From an uncultured Candidatus Thioglobus sp. (lineage in GTDB: Bacteria; Pseudomonadota; Gammaproteobacteria; PS1; Pseudothioglobaceae), in assembly GCA_905618925.1 (NCBI GenBank), contig CAJQTG010000002.1:1-52541 (forward strand): a stretch of 52,541 bases of DNA, read 5' to 3'. A program made the translations under genes and the position numbers. How positions within the stretch are numbered: the first letter of the stretch is position 1; the number at the start of each line of letters is the position of its first letter. The notes under the pieces were generated by a model. That model did no database searches and was not told where the DNA came from. It was given only the letters and a program-made list of their open reading frames with translations. Positions 30,021-48,809 of the stretch are shown one piece after another.

Positions 30021-30069
30021 CTTGGACTAAATTCCAAACTTCGTTTGATGTGTGAGGGGGGGGGTGGGA
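30021..30069. repeat. R-repeat 1 with G9 run
   Basis: It reads CTTGGACTAAATTCC, then TTTGATGTGTGAGG, then a run of nine G. It contains both halves of the island repeat and lies between the 90-residue gene and R-repeat 2. The space 30070-30240 holds no gene that I can support. Confidence 0.75.
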
Positions 30070-30240
30070 ATTTAGGAACCCTGAGGAAGTTTAGGAGTTT
30101 TTCACTAAAATTTTGCACCCTCCTTCAAAATTATTATACTAAGACTATGTTTCAAAATGAACCTAATAATTTAATAAACAAACCTTTTATAATTTATACA
30201 GGAGGGGTAGTAGTTTTTTCGTTCTAGAATTTTATATTTA

Positions 30241-30262
30241 CTTGAACTAAAGTCCAAATTTC
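30241..30262. repeat. R-repeat 2 (left half only)
   Basis: CTTGAACTAAAGTCCAAATT matches the left half of R1 and R6. It lies 32 bp beyond the 3' end of the EamA gene. Confidence 0.7.
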
Positions 30263-30293
30263 CTTTTTTGTTATCAAAGGAAAAGTATATTAA

Positions 30294-31238
30294 TTAGGTG
30301 CGTAAACTGGTTTTCACCGCTACTGGTTCTTTCTTTACTCCCTCTCGAATAAAAACAAAGAGTCCACTTGCAGTAATAAGTAGCATTCCTAATATTGAAT
30401 AAATATCAGGTATTTCGCTAAAAATAAAGTAGCCACTTCCAATAGCAAATATCAACATAATATACTCAAAAGGTGCAATAACTGGGGGTGAGCCAATTCG
30501 GTATGCAGATGTAAGTAGGAGCATTCCAGCACTTCCAACAGCTGCAATACTAAGAAGCATTACAAGTACTGAATTGTTGTAAATTGACCAATCTCTTATA
30601 AGGTATTCTAGGTTTTTAGCCTGAGAGGGTTCAAATTCGATTAACGGAATTATCAACCAAGCACCTAAAGCAAGTACAACACTACCTCCATATAGATGAA
30701 GCATCTGTTGGAAAACGCTATCTTTTTCGCTTGTATATTTAGCAAGCATCATTGATACTGAGTATGTAAAAGCAGTAATTATAGGCAGTAAAGTAAAGTA
30801 ATTAAATCCTGTAGGGCTTGGTTTAACAATAAGTAAAACACCAATAAAACCGACAATAATGGCACAAATACGGTAGAAACCAACTTCTGACTTAAACATA
30901 AACTTTGATAATATTGTTATAAATAATGGCGTCACAAAGAATAAGCTCGTTGCCTCTGCAAACTCCATTTTTGCCAACGCAAAATAGAAACATAAAAAAC
31001 CTATAAAAAATAGTAAGACTCTAGTGATGGCAAGAATTGGAAACGATGAACTGAAGTCGATACGACGCTTAGTTAATTTAAGAAAAATAATAAGTATGAT
31101 GCTGCCAACCATTCCACGAATAAACATTATTTGAGTCAAAGAAGCATAATCGGCAAGCTGACGAACTAAAACGTCCTGAATGCTGAAGAAAAACATTCCT
31201 ATCAAGATAAAAGAAATTCCCTGTTTGTCGTTGCTCAT
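30294..31238 (-). CDS. EamA/DMT-family transporter
   Basis: This 314-residue protein has ten hydrophobic helices arranged as two EamA repeats. The first repeat opens GISFILIGMFFFSIQDVLVRQLADY, and the second covers about residues 150-300. Relatives export amino acids, purines or other small metabolites; the substrate here is unknown. The gene is a single-gene cassette flanked by R-repeats 2 and 3. Its charged C-terminal tail is cytoplasmic. Confidence 0.85.
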   Translation of the reverse strand: MSNDKQGISFILIGMFFFSIQDVLVRQLADYASLTQIMFIRGMVGSIILIIFLKLTKRRIDFSSSFPILAITRVLLFFIGFLCFYFALAKMEFAEATSLFFVTPLFITILSKFMFKSEVGFYRICAIIVGFIGVLLIVKPSPTGFNYFTLLPIITAFTYSVSMMLAKYTSEKDSVFQQMLHLYGGSVVLALGAWLIIPLIEFEPSQAKNLEYLIRDWSIYNNSVLVMLLSIAAVGSAGMLLLTSAYRIGSPPVIAPFEYIMLIFAIGSGYFIFSEIPDIYSILGMLLITASGLFVFIREGVKKEPVAVKTSLRT

Positions 31239-31320
31239 ATTAATCTCCTAAATTTACTGCCAATTGAAGAGACTCTTCTTTTGAGCAAGGATTAATTTTT
31301 ATGCGATTATAAGCCTATTT

Positions 31321-31374
31321 TGGTCGGACGAGAGGATTTGAATCCTCTTTGATGTGTGAGGGAGGGTGTATATA
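31321..31374. repeat. R-repeat 3 with tRNA-Pro-like end
   Basis: TGGTCGGACGAGAGGATTTG (31321-31340) reads, in reverse complement, as a T-loop, acceptor strand and CCA end like tRNA-Pro. It is joined to TTTGATGTGTGAGGGAGGGT at 31348-31367, the best match to the right-end repeat R10. It separates the EamA and MetE-like cassettes. Confidence 0.7.
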
Positions 31375-31377
31375 AAG

Positions 31378-32454
31378 TTAAACTAATGCTGCCGCTTGAC
31401 ACATTACACGTAATTTTTCCTCTGCTAATTTTGAAGAAAGAAGCCCTAGACCACAATCTGGTGCAACCACCAAACGATTTCTATCAATGTGCTCTATCGC
31501 ATCTTTAAGCCTATCAACAACTTCGTCGACAGTTTCTAGATAGCTTGATGCAATTGCTATAGAGCCAAATATAACGGTTTTATGTTGGAATTTCTCCAGT
31601 AAACCTAGGTCATTACAGCAATGCTTGTCTTCAATTGATATTTGATCAAAGGCTGCTTCATCAATTGCCTTGCTAAGGTGATGGTAACTTAGGGGGTCAG
31701 CCTTCTTGTAATCAAAATCGTCCAAGTGCTCGGGGTAGCCGCAACACATATGAACTATCCTGCTTACCGATTTAGGAACGCCGTGAAAGCACCTTTCTAA
31801 GCCCTCCATGCCAAAATCTAAAGCATCTTTTACTGAGCGCGCAAAAAGAGGCTCGTCAACTTGGATATGCCTGCAACCCGCCTCTACAAGTGCAAGTATT
31901 TCTTTATTTATTGAATCGGCGAGGACGGCATTCAGTTTAGGGCGATCATCATAGTAACAGTCAGCCGTTGTATCCATAATTGTCAAAGGCCCTGGCAGGG
32001 TAAACTTGATATTTCTCGGAGTTAAGGCCTGACTTGCTAAGTAGTCATGAACGCTATAATTTGCTCCAGAATGTTTAATTTTACTTCGAATTGCTGGCAA
32101 ATCGGTTTCATAAGCGCCGTCTCTTAAAATACGTCGCTCAAGCCTCATAAAATCAAAACCCTCTAAATGACGACAATGGTAATGGATATAATTTTCTCGT
32201 CGCACTTCGCCATCTGTTGGAATTGAAATGCCTGCGCGAAGCTGGATGTCTAAAATTTCTTTAGTAGCTTTCAAAAATAGAAGCTCATGGGTGTCTCTGT
32301 TTTTTTGTATATCCAGATTATATTGGAGCGTTGTTTCAATTGTATCCATGGCTCCTTTTTCACGGGCCAAATCAAACCAATCTCGAACAGGCACAAAACT
32401 TGGCTTGGGAAAAGAACCTATAGTTGTCGTTTCAAGGGGATTTAACATTAACAA
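31378..32454 (-). CDS. Core-MetE-like methyltransferase
   Basis: This 358-residue protein matches only the C-terminal catalytic half of cobalamin-independent methionine synthase. It opens with TTTIGSFPKP, and likely zinc ligands are seen in IVHMCCGYP (His, Cys), IEDKH (Glu) and APDCGLG (Cys). FTLPGPLTIMDTT and ILALVEAGCRHIQVDEPLFA are family segments. Short MetE-like proteins lack the folate-binding N-terminal half and often use other methyl donors or serve amine or sulfonium catabolism. The substrate is not evident. It is a single-gene cassette between R3 and R4. Met3 is an alternative start. Confidence 0.85.
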   Translation of the reverse strand: MLMLNPLETTTIGSFPKPSFVPVRDWFDLAREKGAMDTIETTLQYNLDIQKNRDTHELLFLKATKEILDIQLRAGISIPTDGEVRRENYIHYHCRHLEGFDFMRLERRILRDGAYETDLPAIRSKIKHSGANYSVHDYLASQALTPRNIKFTLPGPLTIMDTTADCYYDDRPKLNAVLADSINKEILALVEAGCRHIQVDEPLFARSVKDALDFGMEGLERCFHGVPKSVSRIVHMCCGYPEHLDDFDYKKADPLSYHHLSKAIDEAAFDQISIEDKHCCNDLGLLEKFQHKTVIFGSIAIASSYLETVDEVVDRLKDAIEHIDRNRLVVAPDCGLGLLSSKLAEEKLRVMCQAAALV

Positions 32455-32542
32455 TCTTTCCTTATAGAAAGCAAAATAATAGAAGTGCGATAATCAAAAG
32501 AGCCATTAGTATGGGTAAAATTTTGTTTATTATAAGTCAGCA

Positions 32543-32580
32543 TGAACTTAAGTTCAAATCCTCTCAGATGAGCGGGGAGT
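32543..32580. repeat. R-repeat 4
   Basis: AAGTTCAAATCCTCTCAGATG followed by AGCGGGGAGT is a diverged copy of the R-repeat, between the MetE-like and PhyH genes. The left part contains a perfect inverted repeat, TGAACTTAAGTTCA. Confidence 0.6.
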
Positions 32581-32614
32581 TTACTAATGTTTGGCTAATA
32601 TATAGGTATTCTAT

Positions 32615-33409: not shown

Positions 33410-33487
33410 AACTCCTAAGAAAGGCTACCTTTTAGGGATTGTATTTCACTTTAAAACTTTTAGCAATAATCTATTGCAGAAAAAATA

Positions 33488-34381: not shown

Positions 34382-34390
34382 ATTTTCTTC

Positions 34391-35275
34391 TCAGTCAGTT
34401 AAGTTATCGAGTCGCTCTAAATTACGTTCGTGATGAATTGGCATAGAGCGACCATAAAAGGCTTCAGCATGGTGAGGTCTATTAACCAAGTAGGGATTAG
34501 TGACATAGGTTGGCAGAGCTATAATTCTAGGTTCAGTGCCCTTAGTTACTGTCACTCTGTGCAATGAATAGCGACCTTTAAATATTTGTAAATCACCTGT
34601 TCTTAAACTGAGCACTTTTAGCTTATCTCTCTCACCATATAAAACACTTTTAACGTCATTAAAATTTTCATTTTTTGGTGAACGAATATCAGGCGCATAC
34701 TCAAAGTCTCCACCTTCATCTGATTCATTAACCAATATACTAACAGTGAAATCATTGCCATCAAAGTGCCATGGGAAGTAGTCGCCATCTTTCATTACGC
34801 TATAAGGATTTCGACCTAATGGCTCCGCCCAACGATAGATTGGTCCAACATTTAAGCACTCTGAAAAAAAATGAACCATAACATCTGAATCGTATATTTT
34901 TCTTAAAATAGAGTCTGTTTCTAAAAGGTCTGAGTTTATAAATGAAGACGTTCTTTCCTCAAAAAAACGCATAGGGTGGTCCTTAGGCAGTGAAGAGTCA
35001 TCTTTTGTAAGATAAGGATTGACGAAAGAATGTGCCCTTAGCGCGCCAGCCATAATCCGAAATGCTTCATCTCTCATTTTTTGTACTGCTGAACTAGTAA
35101 TGAAATTAGGAATGTGGGCACATCCCCATTTTTCTAGATCTTTACGGCAATCATTAACAAGCATCTCTCTTCTTGGACTCGTCAAATCATGAATAGGGAA
35201 TTCCTCAAGATCGATAAACTCGTCTAATCGAATTTCAAAAGAGCTAAAAGCCGATGGAGAAGCATTTTTTGTCAT
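34391..35275 (-). CDS. Second Fe(II)/2-oxoglutarate oxygenase
   Basis: This 294-residue protein is a cupin-fold 2OG oxygenase. The iron ligands appear as HFD in FPWHFDGNDFTVSILVNE and a distal histidine in GRYSLHRVTVTKG, and the 2OG arginine is in TEPRIIALPTY. It is distinct from the PhyH enzyme at 32615. The substrate is unknown. It lies between the aldolase (five bases upstream) and the dehydrogenase (nine bases downstream), so oxidation and aldol chemistry probably act on one compound. Confidence 0.8.
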   Translation of the reverse strand: MTKNASPSAFSSFEIRLDEFIDLEEFPIHDLTSPRREMLVNDCRKDLEKWGCAHIPNFITSSAVQKMRDEAFRIMAGALRAHSFVNPYLTKDDSSLPKDHPMRFFEERTSSFINSDLLETDSILRKIYDSDVMVHFFSECLNVGPIYRWAEPLGRNPYSVMKDGDYFPWHFDGNDFTVSILVNESDEGGDFEYAPDIRSPKNENFNDVKSVLYGERDKLKVLSLRTGDLQIFKGRYSLHRVTVTKGTEPRIIALPTYVTNPYLVNRPHHAEAFYGRSMPIHHERNLERLDNLTD

Positions 35276-35280
35276 AATCT

Positions 35281-37248: not shown

Positions 37249-37258
37249 GTATTTTTAA

Positions 37259-37285
37259 TTAATTCAAATCCTATTTGATGAGGAA
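37259..37285. repeat. R-repeat 5
   Basis: TTAATTCAAATCCTATTTGA followed by TGAGGAAG is a shortened R-repeat. It separates the enolase-superfamily gene from the DddP-like cassette. Confidence 0.55.
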
Positions 37286-37299
37286 GACACGTTGGTTAG

Positions 37300-38502
37300 T
37301 TAATAAATCAAGTTATCTTCAAAAGGGTAGTGACTTAAAACTTCAAGTTCCGTGTCGGTTACAAGAACCATTTGCTCTAGTTTTACACCAACTTCTCCTC
37401 CTTTTTCGCCGGAATAGCTTTCAACACACAATACCATGTTAGGCTCAACAATTCCATCATATCCATCCCTCGCCCAGTCTTCTTGATAATATATTTTGGG
37501 GTACTCGTCGGACAGGCCAGCCCCATGGTAAACACAAGGGTAACGGTTACTTATGAAAGCTTCTTTCCGCTGAAATGCTCCACGGGACAATTCTGAAAAA
37601 GTTATGCCTGGTTTAATTGCGTCAATATTAAAATGCAATTCATCATAGGCATGCTGATATGCTTTTCTCTGCTCACTATTTCCACTCCCTCCTCCACAAA
37701 CCCAGGACCTAGATATATCAGCCATATAACCTCTTGGTCCAATCATGTCCGTATCCATAGAGACCATATCACCAGTCTCAATGACTCGTTCCGATGCTTC
37801 CTGCAGCCAAGGGTTTGTTCTTGGACCGGATGACAACATGTGACCTTCAATCCACGAGCCATTATTAGCAATATTGACTTGATGTAGAATTGACCAGACT
37901 TGTCGCTCTGTTAATCCTGCAAAGGTATTTTCTTGCATCAGCTTTAATCCATATTCAGCAACATCTATAGAGTGCTTAATGCATTTAATTTCAGTATCGC
38001 ACTTAATAACTTTTGCTTTTTCAACTAAGCATTCTGCGTCACTTATTTGATAACCAAGAGTTTGTAATGAATTTGAGATGAGTGATGAAACTCTCTCTAT
38101 CGCAATATTTTTATTGTGACCATACTCCCTTACAAAATTATCAACGTCATTACTAAGTAGCTTGACACTATTACTAAGATCAAATCCACTATCGAAAGGG
38201 GTAATAAAATGTGGTCGTCGGTATTCAAAAACGTTAGGAAAGGTATGCCGAGTTGCTCCATGCATAACTAAAGGGCCATGAGCAGGAACAAACAAATAAC
38301 AAGTTGGAATGTGTGACTGAAAGAGCTGGTATTCGTCAAAATCAATAGCGTATCTCAAGCTAACAGGATTAACTAAGATTGATAGGCTAATATTTTGCTC
38401 AAGCATTGATTTGCGTAACCGTCCCAACCGATAATCAAACATATCGTTTAAAGCTTTATCTGAGAATTTTGGGGAGGGCACTATCTTTGTTGAAATGTTC
38501 AT
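37300..38502 (-). CDS. dddP: M24 metalloenzyme with DddP (DMSP lyase) active-site pattern
   Basis: This 400-residue protein has a creatinase-like N-domain and a pita-bread M24 C-domain. Metal ligands are D250, D252, D262, H326, E361 and E376. Y321 and D332 stand where DddP has its catalytic tyrosine and aspartate. Every one is offset by exactly 45 from the residues I recall for Ruegeria DddP (D295, D297, D307, Y366, H371, D377, E406, E421). DddP cleaves dimethylsulfoniopropionate to dimethyl sulfide and acrylate. M24 relatives such as ectoine hydrolase or prolidases remain possible. The start overlaps the FrhB-like stop by four bases. Confidence 0.72.
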   Translation of the reverse strand: MNISTKIVPSPKFSDKALNDMFDYRLGRLRKSMLEQNISLSILVNPVSLRYAIDFDEYQLFQSHIPTCYLFVPAHGPLVMHGATRHTFPNVFEYRRPHFITPFDSGFDLSNSVKLLSNDVDNFVREYGHNKNIAIERVSSLISNSLQTLGYQISDAECLVEKAKVIKCDTEIKCIKHSIDVAEYGLKLMQENTFAGLTERQVWSILHQVNIANNGSWIEGHMLSSGPRTNPWLQEASERVIETGDMVSMDTDMIGPRGYMADISRSWVCGGGSGNSEQRKAYQHAYDELHFNIDAIKPGITFSELSRGAFQRKEAFISNRYPCVYHGAGLSDEYPKIYYQEDWARDGYDGIVEPNMVLCVESYSGEKGGEVGVKLEQMVLVTDTELEVLSHYPFEDNLIY

Positions 38503-39767
38503 TCGAACTCTTTAGGCGTTGGCTCAGTAGTTTTTCCAGAACGTACTCTTGAGCGCGTACCTTCTCGTTGATATTGTCTATCCGACTCAGATAATTCATC
38601 TGCCAGCACAGAAATACGGAGGCGATCAGTTATTGGTACAATTTGATCTTCATCGCCTAATCCTTGGTGACGGTCATGCGCGGCATATTTCTTACGCATT
38701 TGATGAGGCTGGTAGGCGCTCATATCTTCCGGAGTAATATCGTACTCAATATTAATTGCACCAGCCTTCGCTGCAGCTTCCATTAATTCTAAGCCCACTG
38801 AAGTGCGAGCGACTATGGCGTTGGTTCCAGGATCGTTCTTACTACTTTCGCGAGTGGGAGACCCTCCAATCCACGTGTCAGATGCAGCAATATCAGCAGC
38901 CTCCCCAATACCGTCGGGACAAATCTTACATCTAAATGGTAGGTCCCACGAACTTGCATCTTCTCCCCAAAAATCAAGATAGTTTAGGTCCTTTACTTCG
39001 TCTGCAGTTTCAATTCGTGTAGGTCCTGGGCAACCTTGCCCACGATAACGAAGAGAGGTTAAATTTTCCAACTTGACCTCGGAGCGTAATACGAAAGCAT
39101 CTATCGATGATGGATTCATGAAGCCACCACATACAGGTGTTAGCCAGTACTTCACCAGCTTATTTACCCTATCGTCATAATGCGCCAAGTTTCGAAGAGC
39201 AGCAATATCACAAGGCTTGCCAATAAAAGCAAAAGGTTGACCTCGAGCTAATATCTTGTCTATGTCAATAAGTGGAGCAGATGGGCCGTAACGAGATCCG
39301 CCAGTATCTAAAACATCAGCCTCTGAAAAACTTAAATACCTTTCGCCAAAAGTTGGCTCCTTGAAAGAGGCTTTGGTATGCAAAATGAAATCAACTCTTT
39401 GATCTTTCAGAAGAAATTGAGCAAGCGCTGTCAGCACACCACCCGTTGAGCCTTCGAATCGTGTTTTAGGGTCTCCAGCCCAAGCTCTTGAAATTCGCAG
39501 CCATGGCCCCCAAACTTTGTCTATTCGGGTAGCAGGCGTAATCTCTTTGGTTGGAAGCCCTTCAATTCGAGTCCCAGGACATATATTAAAAATTTTTTCG
39601 ACAGTGTCATTATCCAGATCTCCAATAATCACTGGACGCTCATAGCCATTTACCGATTTAACAACCTTTATCTTATCCGGACCTGCAATCGATTGACAAA
39701 TACCACAACCCGCACACAGTCCTTGTTCAGATATTTTATTCATTCTATTATTGGCAGACTGATTCAT
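38499..39767 (-). CDS. FrhB/FdhB-type iron-sulfur flavoprotein
   Basis: This 422-residue protein matches the coenzyme F420 hydrogenase/dehydrogenase beta-subunit family. One [4Fe-4S] site is C18, C21, C24 with C63 followed by proline. The FrhB N and C domains follow, with GGSRYGPSAP, IGKPCDIAALRNLA and a second cysteine set in FRCKICPDGIGEAADI. Relatives pass electrons between ferredoxin-type centres and flavin, or reduce unsaturated bonds. F420 use is not implied. It is translationally coupled to the DddP-like gene, so the two probably act on one pathway. The C-terminal 40 residues are polar and probably disordered. Confidence 0.85.
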   Translation of the reverse strand: MNQSANNRMNKISEQGLCAGCGICQSIAGPDKIKVVKSVNGYERPVIIGDLDNDTVEKIFNICPGTRIEGLPTKEITPATRIDKVWGPWLRISRAWAGDPKTRFEGSTGGVLTALAQFLLKDQRVDFILHTKASFKEPTFGERYLSFSEADVLDTGGSRYGPSAPLIDIDKILARGQPFAFIGKPCDIAALRNLAHYDDRVNKLVKYWLTPVCGGFMNPSSIDAFVLRSEVKLENLTSLRYRGQGCPGPTRIETADEVKDLNYLDFWGEDASSWDLPFRCKICPDGIGEAADIAASDTWIGGSPTRESSKNDPGTNAIVARTSVGLELMEAAAKAGAINIEYDITPEDMSAYQPHQMRKKYAAHDRHQGLGDEDQIVPITDRLRISVLADELSESDRQYQREGTRSRVRSGKTTEPTPKEFE

Positions 39768-39826
39768 TATTTTAACGTTCTAAATTTAAAGAAATTTTTA
39801 TACTAAGATTATATTTCAATTTTTGG

Positions 39827-41392
39827 TTAACCTATTGTTTTTTGGAGCACTACTTTGGCGGGCTTACCTGTTTGCGTGCGTGGCATTTCTTGGAGTACTT
39901 CAAGTGATGTAGGGTTCATAAAACGACTAATAATAGGAGCGCAGAATAAGCGTAACTCTTCCAGGGTCAGTGTCTTGTTTTCTTTAAGCGTTACAAACGC
40001 CTTAACTTGCTCTTCACCGGTCCCATCTGGGATACCAATTACTGCGCAATCAGTCACAGAAGGGTGAGTAAATATGCTCTCCTCTATCTCGTAAGCTGAA
40101 ACCATTTCTCCCTTTACGCGAATCCTTTCTGACATGCGTGCTAGCCAATAAAGGTTGCCTTCGTCATCCAATTTAGCAAAATCTCCTGTGTGGAACCATG
40201 AATTGCGCCAAGCCTTGGCTGTCTCCTCAGGCATGCCAATATATTTGGATGCCATAATAGCGGGCTCAAGTGAGCGAATCACAAGCTCGCCAGATTCTCC
40301 TATAGGGAGTTCATTGTCATCTGCATCTACAATAGCTACTTTATATCGATCCAGAACCTTGCCAGCCCCGCTCTTATCAAAAAGCGGAAGCGCTACGCCG
40401 CCAGCTTCGGTAGAGCCGTATCCAGTGCCTCGGGCTAGTTTAAGCTGAAAGCGAGATTCAAAATCGTCATGGTCAACAGGCAAAGGGGTTCCCCATATAA
40501 AACGCAAACTATGCTGCGTTTCTTCAATGCACGGCTCTGCTGACCAAAGCAACTGCTGAACAGAGCCCATCGACATAAACCATGTTGCCTTATAGCGGCA
40601 AACATCACTCCAAAAATTAGACAGGCTAAAGCCCTGACGAATAACCACTCGGCCGCCAACCATCATGGCTGGCAATATGTCGTACTGTGTTGCTCCTACA
40701 TGATATAAAGGGTATGGACTGTAGACGCAATCTTGCTCAGTAATACTGAATGCCTCTATCATCGACTCTGCAGCTCGAACTGAGGATCTGTGAGGAATAT
40801 CACAACCTTTTGATACGCCCGTAGTGCCTGAAGTAAAAAGAATTACAGCCGTTCCTTCGTCACTAAAGTCACAAGAAAAATTTGAGCTGGACTGACCAAG
40901 AAGTGACTGCCACGGCAATATATTAAAACTTTGAAGGTGCTCTTTAGCCCTCTGTTGCTCATCGATCATGATAACTTGCTGTAAGTGCTTTAGGCTTTCA
41001 GAAATCTCAGATAACTGCTGCAAATGCTCTCCAGAGGTAATCAGTATTTTGCACTTTGTCATATTAATCATGCGCGCAAGTGAGGGGCCGCGTGCATTAC
41101 TATTAATAGCCACTTCGATTACGCCGATTTTTTTAAGTGCGTAGGAGCAAGCTAAAAATTGAACGCAACTTGGAAGCATTATGGCGATGTACTCTTCATC
41201 ACCAAAGCCGAGGTCAATAAGGCCATGGGCAATATGATTTGTTAGTTTATTAAATTCAGCATAGGTTAAGTGCTCGCCTGTTTCAGCTTGGGTCACAAAA
41301 GGTTTGGAGCCGTATTGCTTGGCAGAGTTTTGAAGGAGCAGACCGAGGTTTACTTTTTGACTTTCACGACCTGTGAGTGGCATCTTCTTCAT
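39827..41392 (-). CDS. AMP-forming CoA ligase, CaiC-like
   Basis: This 521-residue adenylate-forming enzyme has the P-loop LFTSGTTGVSKG, the motif YGSTEAGG, the hinge region WFHTGDFAKLDDEGNLYW and the C-terminal catalytic lysine in RTQTGKPAK. The length and short C-terminus fit crotonobetaine/carnitine-CoA ligase CaiC and similar acid ligases. In this cassette it could activate acrylate, DMSP or a betaine. It is the first gene of the ligase, FrhB-like, DddP-like run, 59 bp before the FrhB gene. Confidence 0.88.
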   Translation of the reverse strand: MKKMPLTGRESQKVNLGLLLQNSAKQYGSKPFVTQAETGEHLTYAEFNKLTNHIAHGLIDLGFGDEEYIAIMLPSCVQFLACSYALKKIGVIEVAINSNARGPSLARMINMTKCKILITSGEHLQQLSEISESLKHLQQVIMIDEQQRAKEHLQSFNILPWQSLLGQSSSNFSCDFSDEGTAVILFTSGTTGVSKGCDIPHRSSVRAAESMIEAFSITEQDCVYSPYPLYHVGATQYDILPAMMVGGRVVIRQGFSLSNFWSDVCRYKATWFMSMGSVQQLLWSAEPCIEETQHSLRFIWGTPLPVDHDDFESRFQLKLARGTGYGSTEAGGVALPLFDKSGAGKVLDRYKVAIVDADDNELPIGESGELVIRSLEPAIMASKYIGMPEETAKAWRNSWFHTGDFAKLDDEGNLYWLARMSERIRVKGEMVSAYEIEESIFTHPSVTDCAVIGIPDGTGEEQVKAFVTLKENKTLTLEELRLFCAPIISRFMNPTSLEVLQEMPRTQTGKPAKVVLQKTIG

Positions 41393-41498
41393 AAGCTTCT
41401 CTATATAAATGGGCTTTCAACGCTTTTCTAACCAAAAAATGATCTTTTTAGCTCAAGTAGGTAATAGTGATTATTTTTATAATGATAGTGTATATCAA

Positions 41499-41520
41499 TT
41501 TGAACTAAAGTCCAAACTTC
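41499..41520. repeat. R-repeat 6 (left half)
   Basis: TTTGAACTAAAGTCCAAACT matches the left halves of R1 and R2. It lies between the CoA-ligase cassette and the CoiA-like gene. Confidence 0.7.
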
Positions 41521-41525
41521 GATTT

Positions 41526-42629
41526 TTATCTTTTACCAATTCTCTGTTTCAATTGCTCCATTAGATTTTTCCATTCAGTCCAGTTTTTTACATCCATGGT
41601 TTTGGGTATCACATTAATATCAAACTCATCTTCAATTTGTTCATCGCTATAGTCTAATTTTTTCATAACCTCAACATAGTTATTAAGAATTGATGAAGCA
41701 ACCTTGATGTCAAAATAATGAAATCTATTTCTACAAATTCCTATGACATATGGAATTTTTGGCTTAGGTCTTCTATATACAATCTTTTCTCCATAACGCT
41801 TAAATATTTTAATTCCAAGTGACCCTTCAAACCAATCTTCATCATCCTTCATGTCATATTTTTTTCTTATTCTTAAATCTTCTTCAATGAATTTTTGCCC
41901 CCTAATCCTATCTTTTTCTTCTTGCTCTCTTCTATTCTTTTCTTGTTCAGCCTTTATTTCATCAATTTGTTTTTGAATCGGATCTAGTAGAACCTTATAA
42001 ACTTCATCTGACTGAGTGTTATTCATCATTTCAATAAAAGAGTTTCGTGAAAAAGCACTAGTATAAAAACCGTTATAGATTAACCATAGCTCATCAGTAC
42101 CAAAATCTATTAGCACTTTCGACTTACTGGAACCCCACTCCCTTATAAGCCTGTAATCTTCAGGGAACTCATACCCCAAAACTCTTGTCTTATTTCGCAT
42201 ATTTCTAACAAGATTTATTTCATCTTGAAACTGCTTAATATCAGTCGGGCGTCTTGTTCCATCAATCACCCATATCAGCTTATTGTAGAAGTAATCTCTG
42301 GAGTCACGCTCTTCTTTAGAAATCGCTGAATGTTGAAATTCAATAACCCATCCATTGCTAGTTTTAACATCTGCTATGTGTTTTTCACCGCTCTCATCTT
42401 TTTGGATTATCTCTTGCCACTTTTTAGGAAACTTGTTCTTCCAATTACGATGCCATTCTGTTTCATTCTCCCACCAATGGTCATCACACTTCTTCTTATG
42501 TGACCAATGATGTACTTTTATTTCGCCACACTTAGCAACTAGTTCAGAACCACAACAAGGACAAACTCCTTTAGCTCCTTTAGTGGCTTCAATACGCTCA
42601 TCTTTAAAAAGTGCGAACTTCATCTTCAT
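41526..42629 (-). CDS. CoiA-like nuclease
   Basis: This 367-residue protein has an N-terminal zinc-knuckle segment (CPCCGSELVAKCG, then HHWSHKK) and a PD-(D/E)XK-type nuclease core: HRNWKNKFP, HIADVKTSNGWVIEFQHS, and ISKEERDSRDYFY followed by LIWVIDG. This is the CoiA family, named from competence but widespread as stand-alone nucleases on mobile DNA. A charged coiled-coil (about 210-250) and an unclassified C-terminal domain follow. Its place at the end of the element suggests a defence or element-maintenance role, not competence. That is inference. Confidence 0.8.
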   Translation of the reverse strand: MKMKFALFKDERIEATKGAKGVCPCCGSELVAKCGEIKVHHWSHKKKCDDHWWENETEWHRNWKNKFPKKWQEIIQKDESGEKHIADVKTSNGWVIEFQHSAISKEERDSRDYFYNKLIWVIDGTRRPTDIKQFQDEINLVRNMRNKTRVLGYEFPEDYRLIREWGSSKSKVLIDFGTDELWLIYNGFYTSAFSRNSFIEMMNNTQSDEVYKVLLDPIQKQIDEIKAEQEKNRREQEEKDRIRGQKFIEEDLRIRKKYDMKDDEDWFEGSLGIKIFKRYGEKIVYRRPKPKIPYVIGICRNRFHYFDIKVASSILNNYVEVMKKLDYSDEQIEDEFDINVIPKTMDVKNWTEWKNLMEQLKQRIGKR

Positions 42630-42640
42630 AATTGAATTAT

Positions 42641-42770
42641 AAGTCCAAATCCTCTCTGATATACAAGGGAGAGTATATTAATGTACTCCCGATATGACTA
42701 GGCTCCTCCCCCATAGCCTTCAAAGTCTGTATATATATGCGAGGGATAGTAGATTTTTCTACCTATATGG
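42641..42770. repeat. R-repeat 7, long right-end form
   Basis: AAGTCCAAATCCTCTCTGAT opens a segment of about 130 bp. From 42668 on it aligns with 48507-48607: GGGAG..GTATAT, then GGCTCCTCCCCCATA, TTCAAAGTC, GTATATATATG and GAGGGATAGT. The rest of the 42630-42993 gap holds arm sites and attR1. No gene is seen. Confidence 0.75.
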
Positions 42771-42886: not shown

Positions 42887-42936
42887 TTTTAGATTGTAAA
42901 TATTAAATGCTTTATTAATAGGGTTTACATGGGCAA

Positions 42937-42961
42937 GTTCAATTCCCCCCATCTCCACCAA
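42937..42961. repeat. attR1: tmRNA 3' end copy
   Basis: This is a perfect 25-base copy of the tmRNA 3' end (see 25926-25950), with no tmRNA body upstream. It is preceded by TAATAGGGTTTACA, which recurs as TAATAGGGGTTACA before the third copy. It is the right boundary of the inner element and the left boundary of the outer one. Confidence 0.92.
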
Positions 42962-42993
42962 GATATCTTTTATCTAAGCCTTTCATGGCAACC

Positions 42994-44304
42994 TTAACTA
43001 GCAATGGAGCCTTTACCCAAAGGCTTCTTGATATTGGCTAATAACTTTGACAATGAATCCACCAACAACTTTGCATTGTCCTGGGTAAAGACCAAAGGAG
43101 GTTTAATTTTAATAACATTATTATGTGGCCCATCATTACTAAGAAGTATGCCAAGTTCTTTCATTTTATCAGTAATTAACTTTGCCTTTTCTGTTGCCGG
43201 TTTCAGGGTTTTTCTGTCTTCAACCAATTCGATTCCAATAAATAATCCAGCACCTCGAACATCGCCAATCAATGAAAATTTATCTTTTAATAAACACAAC
43301 TCTGAGAACAAATAATTTCCTACATTTAGGGCATTCTGCTGCAACCCCTCCTGTTCGATTACATTGAGAACAGAGAGTCCAATTGCACAAGAAACTGGGT
43401 TGCCACCAAAAGAATTGAAATACTCCATGCCATTATTAAAGAAGCTTGCTATTTCAGCTGTGGTCACAACAGCTGCTATAGGATGGCCGTTACCCAGCGG
43501 TTTGCCAATTGTGACGATGTCCGGAATGACTTCTTGTGCCTCAAACCCCCAATAGGCAGAGCCCACTCTGCCCAAACCCACCTGAACCTCATCACTGATA
43601 CAAACTCCAGAGGACGCCCTTATCCATTTATACGACTCCGCTAAAAAATCATTTGGTAACGGGATTTGCCCACCACAACCTAAAATTGACTCAGCCATAA
43701 AGGTTGAACCCCCACCTTGCTTATTAATTGCCTCCTGAACCACTTGGGCATATTGTTTCCCCGCCGTTTTTGGGTTATTAAATTCACCCCTGAATAAGTC
43801 TGGCATCGGAACAACTTCAACATGTTTTGACTTTCCCTGCCCACCCTTACTATTAAATTTATAAGGACTGATATTGATTAGAGAGTCTGTGTTTCCGTGG
43901 TAGGCATGATCTAGGACAATTGTGCTATCATTGCCCGTATATGCTCTGGCCATTCTTAAAGCCAGCTCGTTCGCCTCACTACCCGAATTTACAAAATGAC
44001 AAATGGACAAGGGTTTGGGTAATTTTCTGCAAAGCTTCTCAGCCAACTCAACAATATTATCATGCAGGTAGCGAGTGTTAGTATTTAATAGTTGATTCTG
44101 CTCGTGAGCCGCATGGATAACAGCAGGATGGCAATGCCCAACATGACTGATATTATTAATACAATCTAAATACTCCTTGCCTTTTTCATCATACAAATAT
44201 TGCCCCCTCCCTCTGAGTATTTTTAGTGGCTCTGAATAAGCCAGAGAGAGTGATGGACCCAGGTGTTTTTTCCTCAACTTCAATGTATCTTTTTTGGATT
44301 TCAC
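42994..44304 (-). CDS. ETNPPL-like class III aminotransferase/phospho-lyase
   Basis: This 436-residue PLP enzyme closely follows the ethanolamine-phosphate/5-phosphohydroxylysine phospho-lyase pattern: [69 protein letters not shown] and the PLP lysine in [11 protein letters not shown], then [18 protein letters not shown]. Such enzymes remove ammonia and phosphate from a phosphorylated amino alcohol. The kinase gene lies three bases upstream, which matches a kinase-then-lyase route. The stop codon lies only 33 bp from the att core. A plain transaminase role is the alternative. Confidence 0.85.
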
Positions 44305-44307
44305 TTT

Positions 44308-45294
44308 TTAATATATTTTAAAATTACTTAGTTCTTTGTCAGCAAAATTTTTCAGAAATGTCCATGCGTATGGCTCAGTAACAGAAATATACTTGTTTTC
44401 AGGAAATAGTTTTTTTCGGTAGTTCGCTGTTACCACGCTAAAACACGCGCGTACACAAACAAGATGAATGAGTGAGTCAATTTCTTCGTCTCTTAATGGA
44501 TAAACTGATTGAAATCCCTGCACAACCGACTTAATCTTCGTCTCAGGCTCTGCTTCTTCTAGAATAAGATAAGTGATGGCAACGGCTAATTCGCTTGCTA
44601 AAAAAGTATGCGCCATATCACCAAAATCAATAACGCCAGATATGTGACCATTGTCATTTAGAAGTACATTGTAATCATTGCCATCATTATGAATATACTG
44701 GGTACGTAAATATTTTTCATTCGGCACAATGTTTAACTGATAATTTGCAATAAAATGACGCACTACATCTTTATCAGACTCACTGTCAATATAGTCTAAA
44801 TGACTTTTCAAAAAGTCAATATTTCTAACATCCCATATCCATTTACGCTTTAAATCCGGATAACCAAACTCTCGAAAAGCAACGTCCAACTTACCCATAA
44901 ATGCGCCAAATTCTTCTAATAAGAAAGGCTCAGGATTCTCAACATCCTTTATAAAGTGTCCTGCTAAAAAAGATTGTAGGCGAATAAAACAGCCATTATG
45001 CCGACTAATAAATTTACCATCTACAGTCTGAATCGTGCTTGGTACTTGTATAGAAGAATCAAAGTTGGCGATATGCTTCAAACTAGCGACCTGTAAATTA
45101 ATAAGCTCAACATCCTCCGCCGGATTTGAAATCTTTAATACAAATTCCTCACCATCTTCACGTTTCAAATAAAAATTCTGATCTCGCTCACTATCCAAGA
45201 CTTTAACTGAGACTTCAAAACCGTATAAAGTTTTTGCTATTTGGTGGGCTTCAGACGGGCTAAATCTTGATGGAGGAAAAGATATAACAGACAT
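44308..45294 (-). CDS. APH-fold small-molecule kinase (hydroxylysine kinase-like)
   Basis: This 328-residue protein has the aminoglycoside phosphotransferase fold. Catalytic segments are QYIHNDGNDYNVLL and the metal aspartate in GVIDFGDMAHTFLASELA. The N-lobe lysine is in FVLKISNPAE. Proteins of this type next to ETNPPL-like lyases resemble hydroxylysine kinase and phosphorylate an amino alcohol. Choline or ethanolamine is also possible. It is the first gene of the pair and reads away from the Rieske gene. Confidence 0.83.
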   Translation of the reverse strand: MSVISFPPSRFSPSEAHQIAKTLYGFEVSVKVLDSERDQNFYLKREDGEEFVLKISNPAEDVELINLQVASLKHIANFDSSIQVPSTIQTVDGKFISRHNGCFIRLQSFLAGHFIKDVENPEPFLLEEFGAFMGKLDVAFREFGYPDLKRKWIWDVRNIDFLKSHLDYIDSESDKDVVRHFIANYQLNIVPNEKYLRTQYIHNDGNDYNVLLNDNGHISGVIDFGDMAHTFLASELAVAITYLILEEAEPETKIKSVVQGFQSVYPLRDEEIDSLIHLVCVRACFSVVTANYRKKLFPENKYISVTEPYAWTFLKNFADKELSNFKIY

Positions 45295-45409
45295 AAGTAT
45301 TAAGTTACCAAAAAAAAGTAAAGCCAGTAAGGCTGAATTAATGCTGACAATTGTATCAAACTCTAGGCCTTGATAATGGCTTGTTTAGTGTTTGCTTGTC
45401 TTTCAGATT

Positions 45410-45452
45410 AAGTCTTGAAAAGTACCTAGTTATGGCTCTCTAATTCCTGTCT
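45410..45452. repeat. S-repeat copy 2 (remnant of small ORF end)
   Basis: It aligns without gaps to 28693-28735 (36 of 43 bases). On the minus strand it still reads RQELESHN and stop in the frame of the 44-residue ORF. It lies in the 45295-45529 gap between the kinase and Rieske genes, which otherwise holds only their promoters. Confidence 0.7.
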
Positions 45453-45529
45453 GATATGTGAGATGTAAATAAATTCACATTCAAGTAAAAATAGACTATA
45501 TTTATAAAAAAATTAGTTAAACTTTTTAA

Positions 45530-46708
45530 ATGAATTCAAATATTTACCTAAATTATCATTCCAATACATCGCTCGATAGTGTCGTTAAAAAACTTAATAT
45601 ATCTGCTCAAAAACCATTTGAAATGGCCACTCCAATACCTGCCGCTGCAAACCATTCAATTGAATTTTATAATCATGAGCTAGTTAACATTTTTAATCAA
45701 GAGTGGGTTTGTATCGGTCGAGATGACGAGATTCCATCAACTGGTGACTACCTTACTCATGAAATAGCTGGTACACCAGTTATGGTAGTTCGACAATCAA
45801 ATAAAAAGATAGCTGGTTTTATTAATGCATGTGCCCATCGCTTTACATGTCTTGTTCCAAAATTATCTGGCAATGCATTTGTTTTTACTTGTCCAAATCA
45901 CGCATGGACATATGATTTAGATGGCACTCTAAGACATGCTCCATTTATGGATATGAAACCTGGTTTTAATTTAGATCAATATCGGTTGCAAGCTCTCCAT
46001 ACTGAGATTTGGGAAGGCTTTATTTATATCACACTGTCAAAAAATCCTCAAAAAAAGATAGCCTCATCACTTAATAGTTTACATAAAAATATTGTCGGCC
46101 AATACGACATGGGAAGTTACCAAACTGTAATAAGGGAATGCATGACATGGGATGCTAATTGGAAAAACTTGATCGAAAATTTTACTGAAAGCTACCATGT
46201 TCCAATTGCACACCAAAAAACATTTGCTAATCATAAAAAACCTATTGAAGACTACATCTGTGGCGAGAATAATGATCATTATTGTTATCATTACGCGCCC
46301 CAAGAATCAGAAACTGGTCCTGGCGCAGCTCATCCAGAAAATACCAAACTGAAGGGTAAGTGGAGGCGCACAATGGTAGATTTTTGTGTTTTTCCTAACC
46401 ATCTAGTAACTCTGATGCCAGATTATCTTTGGTATGTATCAGTTATGCCTTCAGGTATTGGTCAATTTAAAGCAACGTGGGGAGTTGCAGTACCGTCAGA
46501 AATATTAGCTGATATTTCAGCAGAGGATTATGATGGCTGGCTTTCACAAATGGCTAGTTATATAAATACTGCAAATGACGAAGACCGAGCACTAGTGGAA
46601 GGCCTTTATCGTGGAAGTGCTTCATATAAATTACCGCAAGGAACGCTTCACCCAATTGAACGAAATCTTTGGCAATTCATCAGGTATCTATCTCAAATTT
46701 CTAGTTAA
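45530..46708 (+). CDS. Rieske non-heme iron oxygenase alpha subunit
   Basis: This 392-residue protein has a Rieske [2Fe-2S] site C101, H103, C121, H124 (CAHRF and CPNHAW). Its catalytic domain has mononuclear iron ligands H223 and H228 in ESYHVPIAH plus an aspartate near 350-352 (NDEDRALVEG). The size and motifs fit the group that demethylates or hydroxylates quaternary amines such as choline, carnitine and glycine betaine. No reductase gene is adjacent, so electrons must come from elsewhere. The first 31 residues are a variable extension, and Met32 is a possible alternative start. Confidence 0.88.
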   Translation: MNSNIYLNYHSNTSLDSVVKKLNISAQKPFEMATPIPAAANHSIEFYNHELVNIFNQEWVCIGRDDEIPSTGDYLTHEIAGTPVMVVRQSNKKIAGFINACAHRFTCLVPKLSGNAFVFTCPNHAWTYDLDGTLRHAPFMDMKPGFNLDQYRLQALHTEIWEGFIYITLSKNPQKKIASSLNSLHKNIVGQYDMGSYQTVIRECMTWDANWKNLIENFTESYHVPIAHQKTFANHKKPIEDYICGENNDHYCYHYAPQESETGPGAAHPENTKLKGKWRRTMVDFCVFPNHLVTLMPDYLWYVSVMPSGIGQFKATWGVAVPSEILADISAEDYDGWLSQMASYINTANDEDRALVEGLYRGSASYKLPQGTLHPIERNLWQFIRYLSQISS

Positions 46709-46796
46709 TCTTTTAAAATGATTTCAGGTCTATCTTAGTTATACTCACTATCTAAGTTTCTCCAAAAAAATAGAATGATATGTCAATTTAATTCTT

Positions 46797-46834
46797 AAAA
46801 GTCCAAATTCCGTTTGATGTGTGAGGCAGAGTTA
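46797..46834. repeat. R-repeat 9
   Basis: AAAAGTCCAAATTCCG followed by TTTGATGTGTGAGG is a near-consensus R-repeat. It lies between the Rieske and GMC genes. Confidence 0.75.
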
Positions 46835-46874
46835 ATTTAAACTATTGCTTAAAGTGTTTTAAGCGTTGAGTTTT

Positions 46875-48506
46875 ATGGAAAATTATGATTATGTAATAGT
46901 TGGCGCCGGCTCAGCAGGGTGTGTACTTGCAAATAAGCTTGGTGAAGATAAGAAACATAAGATCTTAGTTTTAGAGGCGGGTCCAATGGATTACAATTTG
47001 ATGATCCATATACCTGCTGGTGTTTATAAAGCTTATCGAAACCCAAAGATTAACTGGAATTATTCAACCGAGAATGAACCAGAGCTTTTTGATCGAAATG
47101 TTCCAATGCCTCGAGGTAAAGTTGTTGGAGGTTCTTCGTCTATTAACTCAATGGTTTATATGCGAGGTCATCCATTAGATTATGATCGCTGGCAAACTGA
47201 ATGTGGATTAAAGGATTGGTCTTATGATCAATGCTTACCTTATTTTAAAGAAGGTGAGAATTCAGATCGTGGTGAAGATGAGTGGCGAGGAGGTAGTGGC
47301 AATCTTGGCGTCACAAAAGGTTCTTTTGATAATCCTTTGTTTGATGCACTTGAAGAAGCGGGACGACAATCTGGACAAGGTTATTCTGAAGATCTTAATG
47401 GTTTTAATCCCGAAGGTATAGCAAGGTTTGATGCAACCCGAAAACATGGGCGTCGATGCAGTGCTGCTGGAGCATATCTAAGGCCAGCCCTTGCTCGAGG
47501 AAATATAACGCTCCTCACAAAAGCACAGGTGATGAAAATAAATATTACTGGTAATTCAGTAAATGGGGTTTCCTTTAAGCACAAGGGAAGGCTTCATTCA
47601 GTAGAAGCTAATAAAGAAGTAATACTATCGGGTGGGGCAATAAACTCCCCACATTTACTGATGCTTTCTGGTATCGGCCCATCAAAGCATCTGAAAGAGC
47701 ATGGAATAGACATTCATAAAGATCTTCCCGGAGTTGGCCAAAACCTCCAAGACCATTCGTGTGTCATATTACAATACGCATGCAAAAAAAGTTTTCCAAT
47801 ACATAAAGTTAATCAACCTCATCGAAAATTAGCAACCGGTATAAGATGGGTCTTTACTAGAAAGGGAATTGCAACTTCAAATATTTGGGAAGCGGGTGGA
47901 CTGATAAAAAGCAGTCCAAGTCTAGCATACCCTGACATTCAGTATCACTTTGGTCCAGTAGGACTTGAATATAATGACGACAAAATATCCTTACTACAAG
48001 CTTTTTCAATTCATGTAGATCATCTGCGACCTCGAAGTAGGGGGCAAGTAACTCTAAAGTCTGCAAATCCACTTGAAAAACCATTAATGACATTTAATTA
48101 CTTCCAAGACTCAGAAGATTTAGCTGATATGGTGAATGGATTTAAAAAAGCGCGTGAACTCATTTCACAGCCTGCATTTGATGAATTCAGGGGGGTCGAA
48201 TTAATACCGGGTCCACAAGTGCAATCTGAGGCTGACATTGAGCAGTTTATAAGAGATGCCGCAGAGACAGATTATCACCCCAGCTGTACTTGTGCTATGG
48301 GGGGTGGTGAAATGGCAGTTGTTGATGACCAAATGAAAGTACACGGAATCAAAAATCTTCGCGTTGTCGATGCCTCTGTTATGCCACAAATAATTTCAGG
48401 AAATTTAAATGCCCCAACTCAAATGATAGCTGCTCGTGCAGCAGATATGATTTTAGGAAAGGAACAATTAAGGCCTATAAAAGCAACTTTTGCGTTTGAA
48501 GTGTGA
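46875..48506 (+). CDS. GMC oxidoreductase, choline dehydrogenase-like
   Basis: This flavoprotein of about 543 residues has the FAD loop DYVIVGAGSAGCVLANKL at the N-terminus, the GMC signatures GKVVGGSSSINSMVYMRG and GAINSPHLLMLSGIG, and the catalytic His/Asn region YHPSCTCAMGGGE followed by SGNLNAPTQMIAARAAD. BetA-type enzymes oxidise choline to betaine aldehyde, but relatives take many alcohols. An in-frame TTG lies nine bases upstream, and I prefer the ATG. The stop codon is embedded in R-repeat 10, so the repeat replaced or supplied the gene end. It pairs logically with the Rieske gene. Confidence 0.9.
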   Translation: MENYDYVIVGAGSAGCVLANKLGEDKKHKILVLEAGPMDYNLMIHIPAGVYKAYRNPKINWNYSTENEPELFDRNVPMPRGKVVGGSSSINSMVYMRGHPLDYDRWQTECGLKDWSYDQCLPYFKEGENSDRGEDEWRGGSGNLGVTKGSFDNPLFDALEEAGRQSGQGYSEDLNGFNPEGIARFDATRKHGRRCSAAGAYLRPALARGNITLLTKAQVMKINITGNSVNGVSFKHKGRLHSVEANKEVILSGGAINSPHLLMLSGIGPSKHLKEHGIDIHKDLPGVGQNLQDHSCVILQYACKKSFPIHKVNQPHRKLATGIRWVFTRKGIATSNIWEAGGLIKSSPSLAYPDIQYHFGPVGLEYNDDKISLLQAFSIHVDHLRPRSRGQVTLKSANPLEKPLMTFNYFQDSEDLADMVNGFKKARELISQPAFDEFRGVELIPGPQVQSEADIEQFIRDAAETDYHPSCTCAMGGGEMAVVDDQMKVHGIKNLRVVDASVMPQIISGNLNAPTQMIAARAADMILGKEQLRPIKATFAFEV

Positions 48507-48607
48507 GGGAGGGTGTATATATACCTTCCCAATAGCAATGAGCCTCCCCCGTACCCTTCAAAGTCAGTATATATATGAGAGGGATAGTGTATATTTATCT
48601 TCTATAT
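48495..48607. repeat. R-repeat 10, long right-end form
   Basis: It begins TTTGAAGTGTGAGGGAGGGT over the GMC stop codon. It continues with GAGCCTCCCCCGTA, TTCAAAGTCAGTATATATATG and GAGGGATAGT, aligned to R-repeat 7. The rest of the 48507-48893 gap holds arm sites, attR2 and a hairpin. No gene is seen. Confidence 0.75.
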
Positions 48608-48794: not shown

Positions 48795-48809
48795 CTTAAA
48801 CCCATATAT

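What the first reader, a model, noticed from the sequence alone, without database searches (positions are those of the whole stretch)
30021..48607. A directly oriented intergenic repeat divides the island into cassettes
Copies R1 to R10 (30021, 30241, 31321, 32543, 37259, 41499, 42641, 46797, 48495) share CTTGAACTAAAGTCCAAATCC and/or TTTGATGTGTGAGGGAGGGT. All are in the same orientation, all lie between genes or gene groups, and none was seen in the core flanks. Each cassette encodes one or a few enzymes. The long form occurs only at the two right ends, so the short copies may be scars of earlier right ends, or recombination sites for cassette gain. This is the best candidate for an undescribed assembly system.
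Basis: partly seen in the sequence, partly recalled or inferred. Interest (0 to 1): 0.82.

Follow-up and report, generated by a model that had tools for sequence, protein, structure and literature searches.

The report
Gene-cassette arrays in marine Thioglobus bacteria
Marine sulfur bacteria of the SUP05/Thioglobus group carry rows of small gene packages joined by one same-facing short DNA sequence, and different strains hold different packages that meet at that sequence, as in integrons but without the known integron enzyme or its sites.

Summary
A 33-bp core (AAAGTCCAAATTTCGTTTGATGTGTGAGGGAGG; 'long' copies add ~80 bp) occurs nine times, same-facing, between genes in the 30-48.6 kb ssrA island. 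It also occurs elsewhere in the genome, in 27 of 29 genomes of the genus and 2 of 2 of a sister genus, and weakly in 2 of 52 others of the family. In 130 fetched loci I count 308 copies; 177 of 181 neighbouring pairs face the same way. Of 310 cross-genome pairs of copies that share a flank, 6 share both. Of 174 segments between copies, 73 recur in another genome and 38 of these (about 20 distinct cassettes) are bounded by copies at both ends there, including two of the window's eight segments. This is a gene-cassette array system. It is not an integron: no IntI over cut-off (0 of 29), no attC boxes (0 of 66 long sites), no consistent hairpin. Exchange maps inside the core, but I found no enzyme. 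An unidentified trans-acting recombinase is my best explanation; RecA or end-joining at short homology is the main rival.

The parts
25600..25949 (+). ssrA (tmRNA); its 3' end (25926-25950) is the island attachment core
   Evidence: ARAGORN and Rfam RF00023, 196.8 bits; 25-bp repeat
26138..27412 (+). P4-type tyrosine integrase of the ssrA island
   Evidence: Pfam Arm-DNA-bind_3, Phage_int_M, Phage_integrase; 'P4-type' is my reading of that domain set
30018..30072 (+). cassette junction R1 (short)
   Evidence: model R1, 36.6 bits, E 3.0e-9
30238..30295 (+). cassette junction R2 (short, divergent right half)
   Evidence: model R1, 31.1 bits
30294..31238 (-). cassette R2-R3: EamA-family transporter
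   Evidence: Pfam EamA; 98% copy in G002 not bounded by sites, 82% copy in G015 with a site at one end
31333..31378 (+). cassette junction R3; its left side is a minus-strand tRNA-Pro 3' end remnant
   Evidence: model R1, 34.1 bits; sequence against the genus tRNA-Pro(GGG) 3' end
31378..32454 (-). cassette R3-R4: cobalamin-independent methionine synthase-like protein
   Evidence: Pfam Meth_synt_2; 96.4% copy in G002 with a site 7 bp from one end
32539..32591 (+). cassette junction R4 (short)
   Evidence: model R1, 29.4 bits
32615..37248 (.). cassette R4-R5: five genes (PhyH, 3-hydroxyisobutyrate-dehydrogenase-like, HalD-like, class II aldolase, enolase-superfamily)
   Evidence: Pfam; 97% copy in G002 bounded by sites at 1 and 30 bp
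37251..37303 (+). cassette junction R5 (short, divergent)
   Evidence: model R1, 27.1 bits; the same copy with matching sequence on both sides for the 140-bp flank shown in G002
37300..41392 (-). cassette R5-R6: M24 peptidase family, FrhB-like, AMP-binding enzyme
   Evidence: Pfam; homologues 81-85% aa in the G018 array, there split over two segments
41496..41542 (+). cassette junction R6 (short, right half degenerate)
   Evidence: model R1, 16.3 bits, E 0.009
41526..42629 (-). cassette R6-R7: CoiA-N-domain protein
   Evidence: Pfam CoiA_N
42637..42764 (+). cassette junction R7, long form (right end of island 1)
   Evidence: nhmmer long profile; model R1, 38.5 bits
42937..42961 (+). attR of island 1: exact copy of the ssrA 3' end
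   Evidence: 25/25 direct repeat
42994..46708 (.). cassette R7-R8: class-III aminotransferase, APH-domain protein, Rieske oxygenase
   Evidence: Pfam; 96% partial copies in G037 and G036, the latter with a site 17 bp from one end
46789..46842 (+). cassette junction R8 (short)
   Evidence: model R1, best hit of the own genome, 41.7 bits, E 6.7e-11
46843..48478 (+). cassette R8-R9: GMC oxidoreductase
   Evidence: Pfam GMC_oxred; 98.3% copy in G037 bounded by sites at 1 and 0 bp; 96% copies in single-contig genome G030 and in G016 with a site 2 and 1 bp from one end
48479..48607 (+). cassette junction R9, long form (right end of island 2)
   Evidence: nhmmer long profile
48771..48795 (+). decayed ssrA attachment copy (19/25)
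   Evidence: direct repeat family D3, 76%

Best explanation
The repeat is the junction site of a gene-cassette array system of the Thioglobus/SUP05 group. Shown: cassettes of one or a few genes sit in rows, joined by same-facing copies of a 33-bp core; rows differ between genomes and homology switches at the core; the same cassette is found bounded by sites in different genomes with different neighbours. Inferred: cassettes are moved by recombination between two cores, which removes or inserts the DNA between two same-facing sites as a unit. In cassettes that share their left body, roughly the first 13-18 bp of the core travel with that body, which puts the exchange in the centre or right half of the core (TTTCGTTTGATGTGTGAGG). 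Because the core is conserved across species while its flanks are not, and because unrelated copies differ at about 7 of 33 positions with no flanking homology, I think a sequence-specific recombinase supplied in trans recognises it. The enzyme is unknown. The long form (core, ~45 bp, then a second shorter AAAGTC...GAGGGA unit) often marks array ends near tRNA/ssrA attachment sites, so arrays grow inside or beside tRNA-targeted islands.
For: Co-orientation: 177 of 181 neighbours. Junctions: 304 of 310 flank-sharing pairs share one flank only; at >=90% flank identity 73 of 78. In one call, sites gave 91 of 93 and ordinary intergenic points of the same loci 60 of 114. Alignment ends: 98 of 836 lie within 60 bp of sites in both genomes; random placement mean 1.6, largest 5 in 200 trials. 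38 of 73 recurring segments bounded by sites at both ends elsewhere. Breakpoints: 14 groups of left-sharing pairs fit best with a break after position 13-18; left edge 14.7 and right edge 31 log units worse. Taxon-limited conservation. Single-contig genome G030 has an 8-site, 7-segment row (six single genes, one pair) next to tRNA-Met. 1 of 184 sites lies inside an ORF.
Against: No recombinase was identified. G012 and G008 carry arrays but show no Pfam tyrosine recombinase hit besides two Xer-like ones (G008 is 82% complete), and 4 of 29 genomes have a serine recombinase hit. Likeness of the long site to the genus dif is not beyond chance (330 or 1135 of 3000 shuffles as good). Right-sharing pairs do not show the mirror-image linkage (best fit: none of the core travels with the right body), the bootstrap is broad, and breaks after position 7-12 are only 2-3 log units worse in the left set, so one crossover point is not established. 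Over all pairs, mean core mismatches are only a little lower for left-sharing (6.2) and right-sharing (5.3) than for unrelated pairs (6.8). Left junctions differ by 12-24 bp in several pairs. 35 of 73 recurring segments lack a site at one or both ends. One inserted cassette (G015 against G018) was not cut at a site on its outer ends.
Confidence: 0.52

Rival explanations
1. The repeat is an ordinary dispersed intergenic repeat, and cassettes are exchanged by RecA-dependent or microhomology recombination between copies; no dedicated enzyme exists.
For: No dedicated recombinase found. One insertion (G015 against G018) has a 13-bp shared stretch at an outer junction and no site there. In single-contig genome G030 a core copy is fused to a truncated integrase gene at what I read as a short shared stretch. 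The exchange point within the core is not sharp.
Against: Unrelated copies differ at 6.8 of 33 positions on average and lack flanking homology, a poor substrate for RecA (general knowledge). ComEC is found in 3 of 29 genomes, so classical transformation looks absent in most, though many genomes are incomplete. Context switches at the core in 304 of 310 pairs.
Confidence: 0.28
2. Accretion scars: each site is the remnant of the right end (arm region) of a tRNA- or ssrA-targeted element; serial integration followed by loss of att and integrase leaves rows of cargo.
For: Both long copies in the window lie 164-173 bp before ssrA-end copies. Four tRNA-Met loci have a long site 196-197 bp from the tRNA end. 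A tRNA-Pro end remnant abuts R3. Intact tRNA ends lie near right sides more than left (12 of 200 against 2 of 195; random windows 46 of 4000).
Against: 188 of 200 right flanks show no intact tRNA end (the pattern misses decayed ones and ssrA). Accretion alone does not explain the same cassette in different genomes bounded by sites at both ends with different neighbours.
Confidence: 0.13
3. The repeat is a regulatory unit (promoter on the opposite strand plus terminator) carried by many genes; it marks gene borders only for that reason.
For: On the opposite strand the left flank reads as a sigma70-like promoter in many copies (my reading by eye); the left gene reads away from the site in 108 of 159 cases.
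Against: In 51 of 159 cases the left gene reads towards the site and 41 sites lie between convergent genes, yet copies in a row still face one way. Regulation does not predict the homology switch.
Confidence: 0.05
4. The changed junctions are assembly errors at repeats.
For: Many genomes are metagenome-assembled (titles) and some contigs end at sites. Contig C57 of G015 holds the same sites twice in inverted copies, which may be such an error.
Against: Rows of sites also occur in two single-contig genomes, G006 and G030, and in genomes titled SCGC, i.e. single cells (meaning of SCGC recalled); the R8-R9 cassette ends 2 bp from a site in G030. Copies are short and diverged.
Confidence: 0.02

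Closest known systems
Integrons and CALINs (attC cassette arrays)
   Same: Rows of exchangeable, often single-gene cassettes joined by co-oriented sites; variable content; genes mostly one way relative to the site (104 against 56).
   Different: No IntI over cut-off in 29 genomes; no RYYYAAC/GTTRRRY boxes in 66 long sites; no consistent hairpin; many cassettes seem to carry their own promoter-like leader (my reading).
p-dif (Xer) modules of plasmids (recalled)
   Same: Gene modules bounded by short recombination sites; Xer-like recombinases are the only ones seen in nearly all genomes here.
   Different: p-dif sites alternate in orientation (recalled), these face one way; dif likeness is not beyond chance.
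Tycheposons and tRNA-anchored additive genomic islands (Prochlorococcus, Methylophilaceae)
   Same: tRNA-adjacent islands with tyrosine recombinase and metabolic cargo in streamlined aquatic bacteria.
   Different: In the passages I saw (PMC10872708) islands are marked by a tRNA-Met border or by repeated tRNA-end copies; no 33-bp junction between single genes is mentioned there.
Minimal mobile elements and intergenic repeat families (recalled)
   Same: Small exchangeable gene units between conserved genes; dispersed intergenic repeats.
   Different: Those exchange by flanking-gene homology and transformation (recalled); here the junction itself is the repeat and ComEC is found in 3 of 29 genomes.

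Membership tests
Integron / CALIN | integron integrase IntI (not required for CALIN) | tested here: not met
   TIGR02249: 0 of 29 genus genomes over the cut-off; the best hits look like XerC/XerD
Integron / CALIN | attC R boxes RYYYAAC ... GTTRRRY (motif recalled) | tested here: not met
   0 of 66 long sites on either strand; random windows 24 of 5000 on one strand
Integron / CALIN | site folds as a single-strand hairpin | tested here: not met
   0 of 6 predicted pairs covary; 1 of 10 long sites with z below -2, drawn strand only
Integron / CALIN | co-oriented sites between exchangeable cassettes | tested here: met
   177 of 181 neighbours co-oriented; 38 segments bounded at both ends in a second genome
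p-dif / Xer module | XerC/XerD (dif-like) sites | tested here: inconclusive
   shuffles as good as the genus dif: 330 or 1135 of 3000; half-sites 80, 183 and 1670 of 2000
p-dif / Xer module | sites in alternating orientation (recalled) | tested here: not met
   4 of 181 neighbours opposite
Tycheposon-like tRNA island | border at a tRNA gene | tested here: inconclusive
   seen for the ssrA island, five tRNA-Met loci and tRNA-His loci; intact tRNA end near 12 of 200 right flanks
Tycheposon-like tRNA island | tyrosine recombinase in the island | tested here: inconclusive
   present in the window and L077; only two Xer-like hits in G012 and in G008, which carry arrays
Minimal mobile element | spread by natural transformation | tested here: inconclusive
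   ComEC in 3 of 29 genomes; absence in incomplete genomes is weak evidence
Rfam RNA family | match to a described RNA | tested here: not met
   only tmRNA in the window at gathering cut-offs

The most novel reading that the evidence does not exclude
A second, independently evolved gene-cassette capture system: a short double-stranded junction site, acted on by a host-encoded recombinase still to be named, lets streamlined ocean bacteria gather, drop and swap single metabolic genes in fixed tRNA-side rows without IntI, attC hairpins or transformation.
Probability: 0.42. Interest if true: 0.93.

Novelty: new variant of a known kind. Interest (0 to 1): 0.8.

Why it matters
SUP05/Thioglobus are abundant sulfur-oxidising ocean bacteria with small genomes (general knowledge). 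A cassette system would explain how they keep changing their metabolic gene set, and it gives a sequence handle (the core) for finding movable genes in ocean metagenomes. If an enzyme is found, it would be a cassette recombination machinery outside the integron family, with a double-stranded site, of interest for evolution and as a genetic tool.

Tried and rejected
Integron with a missed integrase: rejected after TIGR02249 (0 of 29 over cut-off), R-box (0 of 66) and folding tests. Known RNA family: only tmRNA. Xer/dif site: tempting by eye, not beyond chance. Replication-strand rule for orientation: I looked at site strands in G006 and G030 and saw no simple pattern, but did not map origin or terminus, so this is not a test. 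Promoter/terminator only: does not fit 51 of 159 neighbours. Virus-borne: 0 stretches in IMG/VR for one exact pattern. Circular excised cassettes: 0 of 27 whole contigs have overlapping ends. Defence genes: 0 PADLOC matches for the ten proteins given. Clean empty site: the G015/G018 case is messy at its outer ends. I first read G035 against G030 as a five-cassette deletion between two sites; one search showed that the shared left flank is only ~176 bp of a signal-peptide gene family, so I dropped it. That family also inflates the left-sharing count; the >=90% identity counts (29 left, 44 right, 5 both) are safer. The 38 both-end-bounded segments include reciprocal entries; I group them by hand into about 20 distinct cassettes. 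Contig C57 of G015 holds an inverted copy, so about four sites are counted twice among the 308. Loci were chosen from capped listings of best hits, so copy numbers are lower bounds. Rows dropped before counts: sites with short flanks or duplicates (308 to 251), 48 edge or far sites, HSPs under 250 bp and endpoints near sequence ends, segments under 200 or over 9000 bp or with opposite sites. Literature: searches (0 papers; 8 listed of 8; 15 of 218; 15 of 59; 15 of 1,204; 20 of 6,317; 4 of 4) listed no title on such repeats or cassettes in Thioglobus/SUP05; I saw listings and abstract starts only, plus passages of PMC10872708. The library lacks most subscription papers and the lists were cut, so this is weak evidence of absence.
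Full report
OBSERVATION. The nine listed copies exist. Exact-string searches recover only some, but a 60-position sequence model built from the nine finds all of them, eight at E 3.0e-6 or better and R6 at 0.009 in the 1.25-Mb own genome (partly by construction). All are on the + strand and no hit lies in the core flanks of the window. The long form occurs at 42637-42764 and 48479-48607. Each is followed 173 and 164 bp later by a copy of the ssrA 3' end (25/25 and 19/25).

THE SITE. Pooling 84 copies gives the core AAAGTCCAAATTTCGTTTGATGTGTGAGGGAGG. Twenty-two long copies show the core, about 45 bp including a variable stretch, and a second shorter unit that also starts AAAGTC and ends near GAGGGA. 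Among 308 copies in 130 loci of 28 genomes, 66 are long (>=95 bp) and 242 short; about four are counted twice because one contig holds an inverted copy. Of 184 copies, one lies more than 60 bp inside an ORF of 100 aa or more.

DISTRIBUTION. In one search, 18 of 19 genomes of the genus (own included) and 0 of 11 from other genera had the site at E <= 0.001. In the family search (E <= 1e-4, stricter filters) 27 of 29 genus genomes and 2 of 2 of one sister genus had it, against 2 of 52 other family genomes with 1 and 3 matches. An exact 27-base pattern found 48 stretches in one genome per species of GTDB r220; 43 are titled Thioglobus, Pseudothioglobus, SUP05 or gammaproteobacterium, and 5 lie in records titled Rhodospirillales (3), Uhrbacteria (1) and PS1 clade (1). 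The PS1-clade contig has the length of contig C54 of genus member G007 (14,577 bases); the other four may be mixed bins or real, not followed up. The pattern found nothing in IMG/VR.

ARRAYS. Neighbours within 6 kb face the same way in 177 of 181 cases; the median spacing of neighbours within 12 kb is 1.24 kb. Single-contig genome G030 has eight sites in 7.2 kb beside tRNA-Met, with six single genes and one two-gene pair between them. Genes in or beside rows include IMP-dehydrogenase family, phosphodiesterase, PhyH, glycoside hydrolase family 5, fumarase-like lyase, arginase family, desaturase and transporters. Genes tend to run against the drawn direction of the site (104 against 56), but sites stay co-oriented where genes turn; 41 of 159 lie between convergent genes.

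(a) Ends of blastn alignments between array loci of different genomes fall within 60 bp of a site in both genomes for 98 of 836 endpoints; random placement over the loci gave a mean of 1.6 and a largest value of 5 in 200 trials. So most endpoints are not at sites, but far more than chance are. (b) Of 251 distinct copies with flanks, 310 cross-genome pairs share a flank; 208 share only the left, 96 only the right, 6 both; at >=90% identity 29, 44 and 5. In an earlier subset of 164 copies the figures were 52, 39 and 2, while 435 ordinary intergenic points of the same loci gave 60 pairs sharing one side and 54 sharing both. Pairs are not independent, and a family of signal-peptide genes inflates the left count. 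(c) Of 174 segments between co-oriented neighbours, 73 were found (>=85% covered) in another genome, 38 of them bounded by sites (within 40 bp) at both ends there, about 20 distinct cassettes by my grouping; 35 were not. In the window, the five-gene cassette R4-R5 is in G002 (97%, sites at 1 and 30 bp) and the GMC-oxidoreductase cassette R8-R9 is in G037 (98.3%, sites at 1 and 0 bp) and, with one end at a site, in G030 (96.1%) and G016 (96.5%). The other six window segments were not found bounded at both ends.

ANCHORED ROWS. At the tRNA-Met locus the flank shared between genomes (5.3-7.6 kb, 75-79% identity) runs up to or into a long site. In G030, G004, G035 and G033 that site begins 196-197 bp from the tRNA end, and beyond it the pairs compared share no match longer than 193 bp. 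In G006 the long site lies further away, and G006 and G004 share one 1.3-kb cassette (95%). Beside another conserved gene (c216) G016 and G030 both have a site, with different cassettes beyond it.

WHERE THE EXCHANGE HAPPENS. In left-sharing pairs with intact spacing (18 pairs, 14 groups) the first 13-18 core positions follow the left body best; breaks after 7-12 are 2-3 log units worse, the left edge 14.7 and the right edge 31 worse. In right-sharing pairs (35 pairs, 17 groups) no part of the core clearly follows the right body. The combined best fit is after position 13; over 200 bootstraps 45 chose 13 and 31 chose 32. I conclude that exchange lies within the core, in its centre or right half, and that a single point is not established. 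Left junctions sometimes differ by 12-24 bp.

ENZYME. No integron integrase over cut-off (0 of 29). All 29 genomes have a tyrosine recombinase hit; the commonest look like XerC/XerD, and G012 and G008, which carry arrays, show two such hits and no others. Serine recombinase hits occur in 4 of 29 and ComEC in 3 of 29. Likeness of the long site to the genus dif is within chance. No attC boxes (0 of 66) and no consistent fold.

VERDICT. A cassette-array system of this bacterial group is well supported. Site-specific recombination by an unnamed trans-acting enzyme is the likeliest mechanism (about one in two), with RecA or end-joining at short homology as the main rival. It works like an integron array and fails the integron membership test.

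Noticed in passing
L077, L223, L225-L231 (tyrosine integrases, mostly next to tRNA-His, -Lys or -Pro): Integrases at different tRNA genes share a very similar C-terminal catalytic half but differ more in the N-terminal half, as if the targeting half is exchanged; the one at tRNA-Arg (L232) is more distant (read by eye).
   Followed up: partly
window 31318-31345 (minus strand), left side of R3: A remnant of a tRNA-Pro 3' end (fits the genus tRNA-Pro(GGG) end with one base missing, by eye) abuts the cassette junction.
   Followed up: partly
L224:5150-5520 (single-contig genome G030): Behind a tRNA-like 3' end a junction core is fused directly to the last ~60 codons of an integrase gene, apparently at a short shared stretch.
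   Followed up: partly
L078, L117, L121, L146, L147, L221, L247 left flanks of sites: A family of genes shares leader, start and signal-peptide region but differs downstream, as if new proteins are built behind one secretion leader.
   Followed up: partly
L070:2907-4739, L069:8679-10169: Genes that are usually housekeeping (BipA/TypA, NAD(P)HX epimerase/dehydratase) sit between junction sites in G018; the second also in G017.
   Followed up: no
window 34391-35275: A HalD-like (halogenase D) protein lies in the five-gene cassette R4-R5.
   Followed up: no
tRNA-Met and ssrA ends: L221:7800-7870, window 48690-48725: Paired GTACACA-like direct repeats lie between the attachment end and the long site, possibly integrase arm sites (read by eye).
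   Followed up: no
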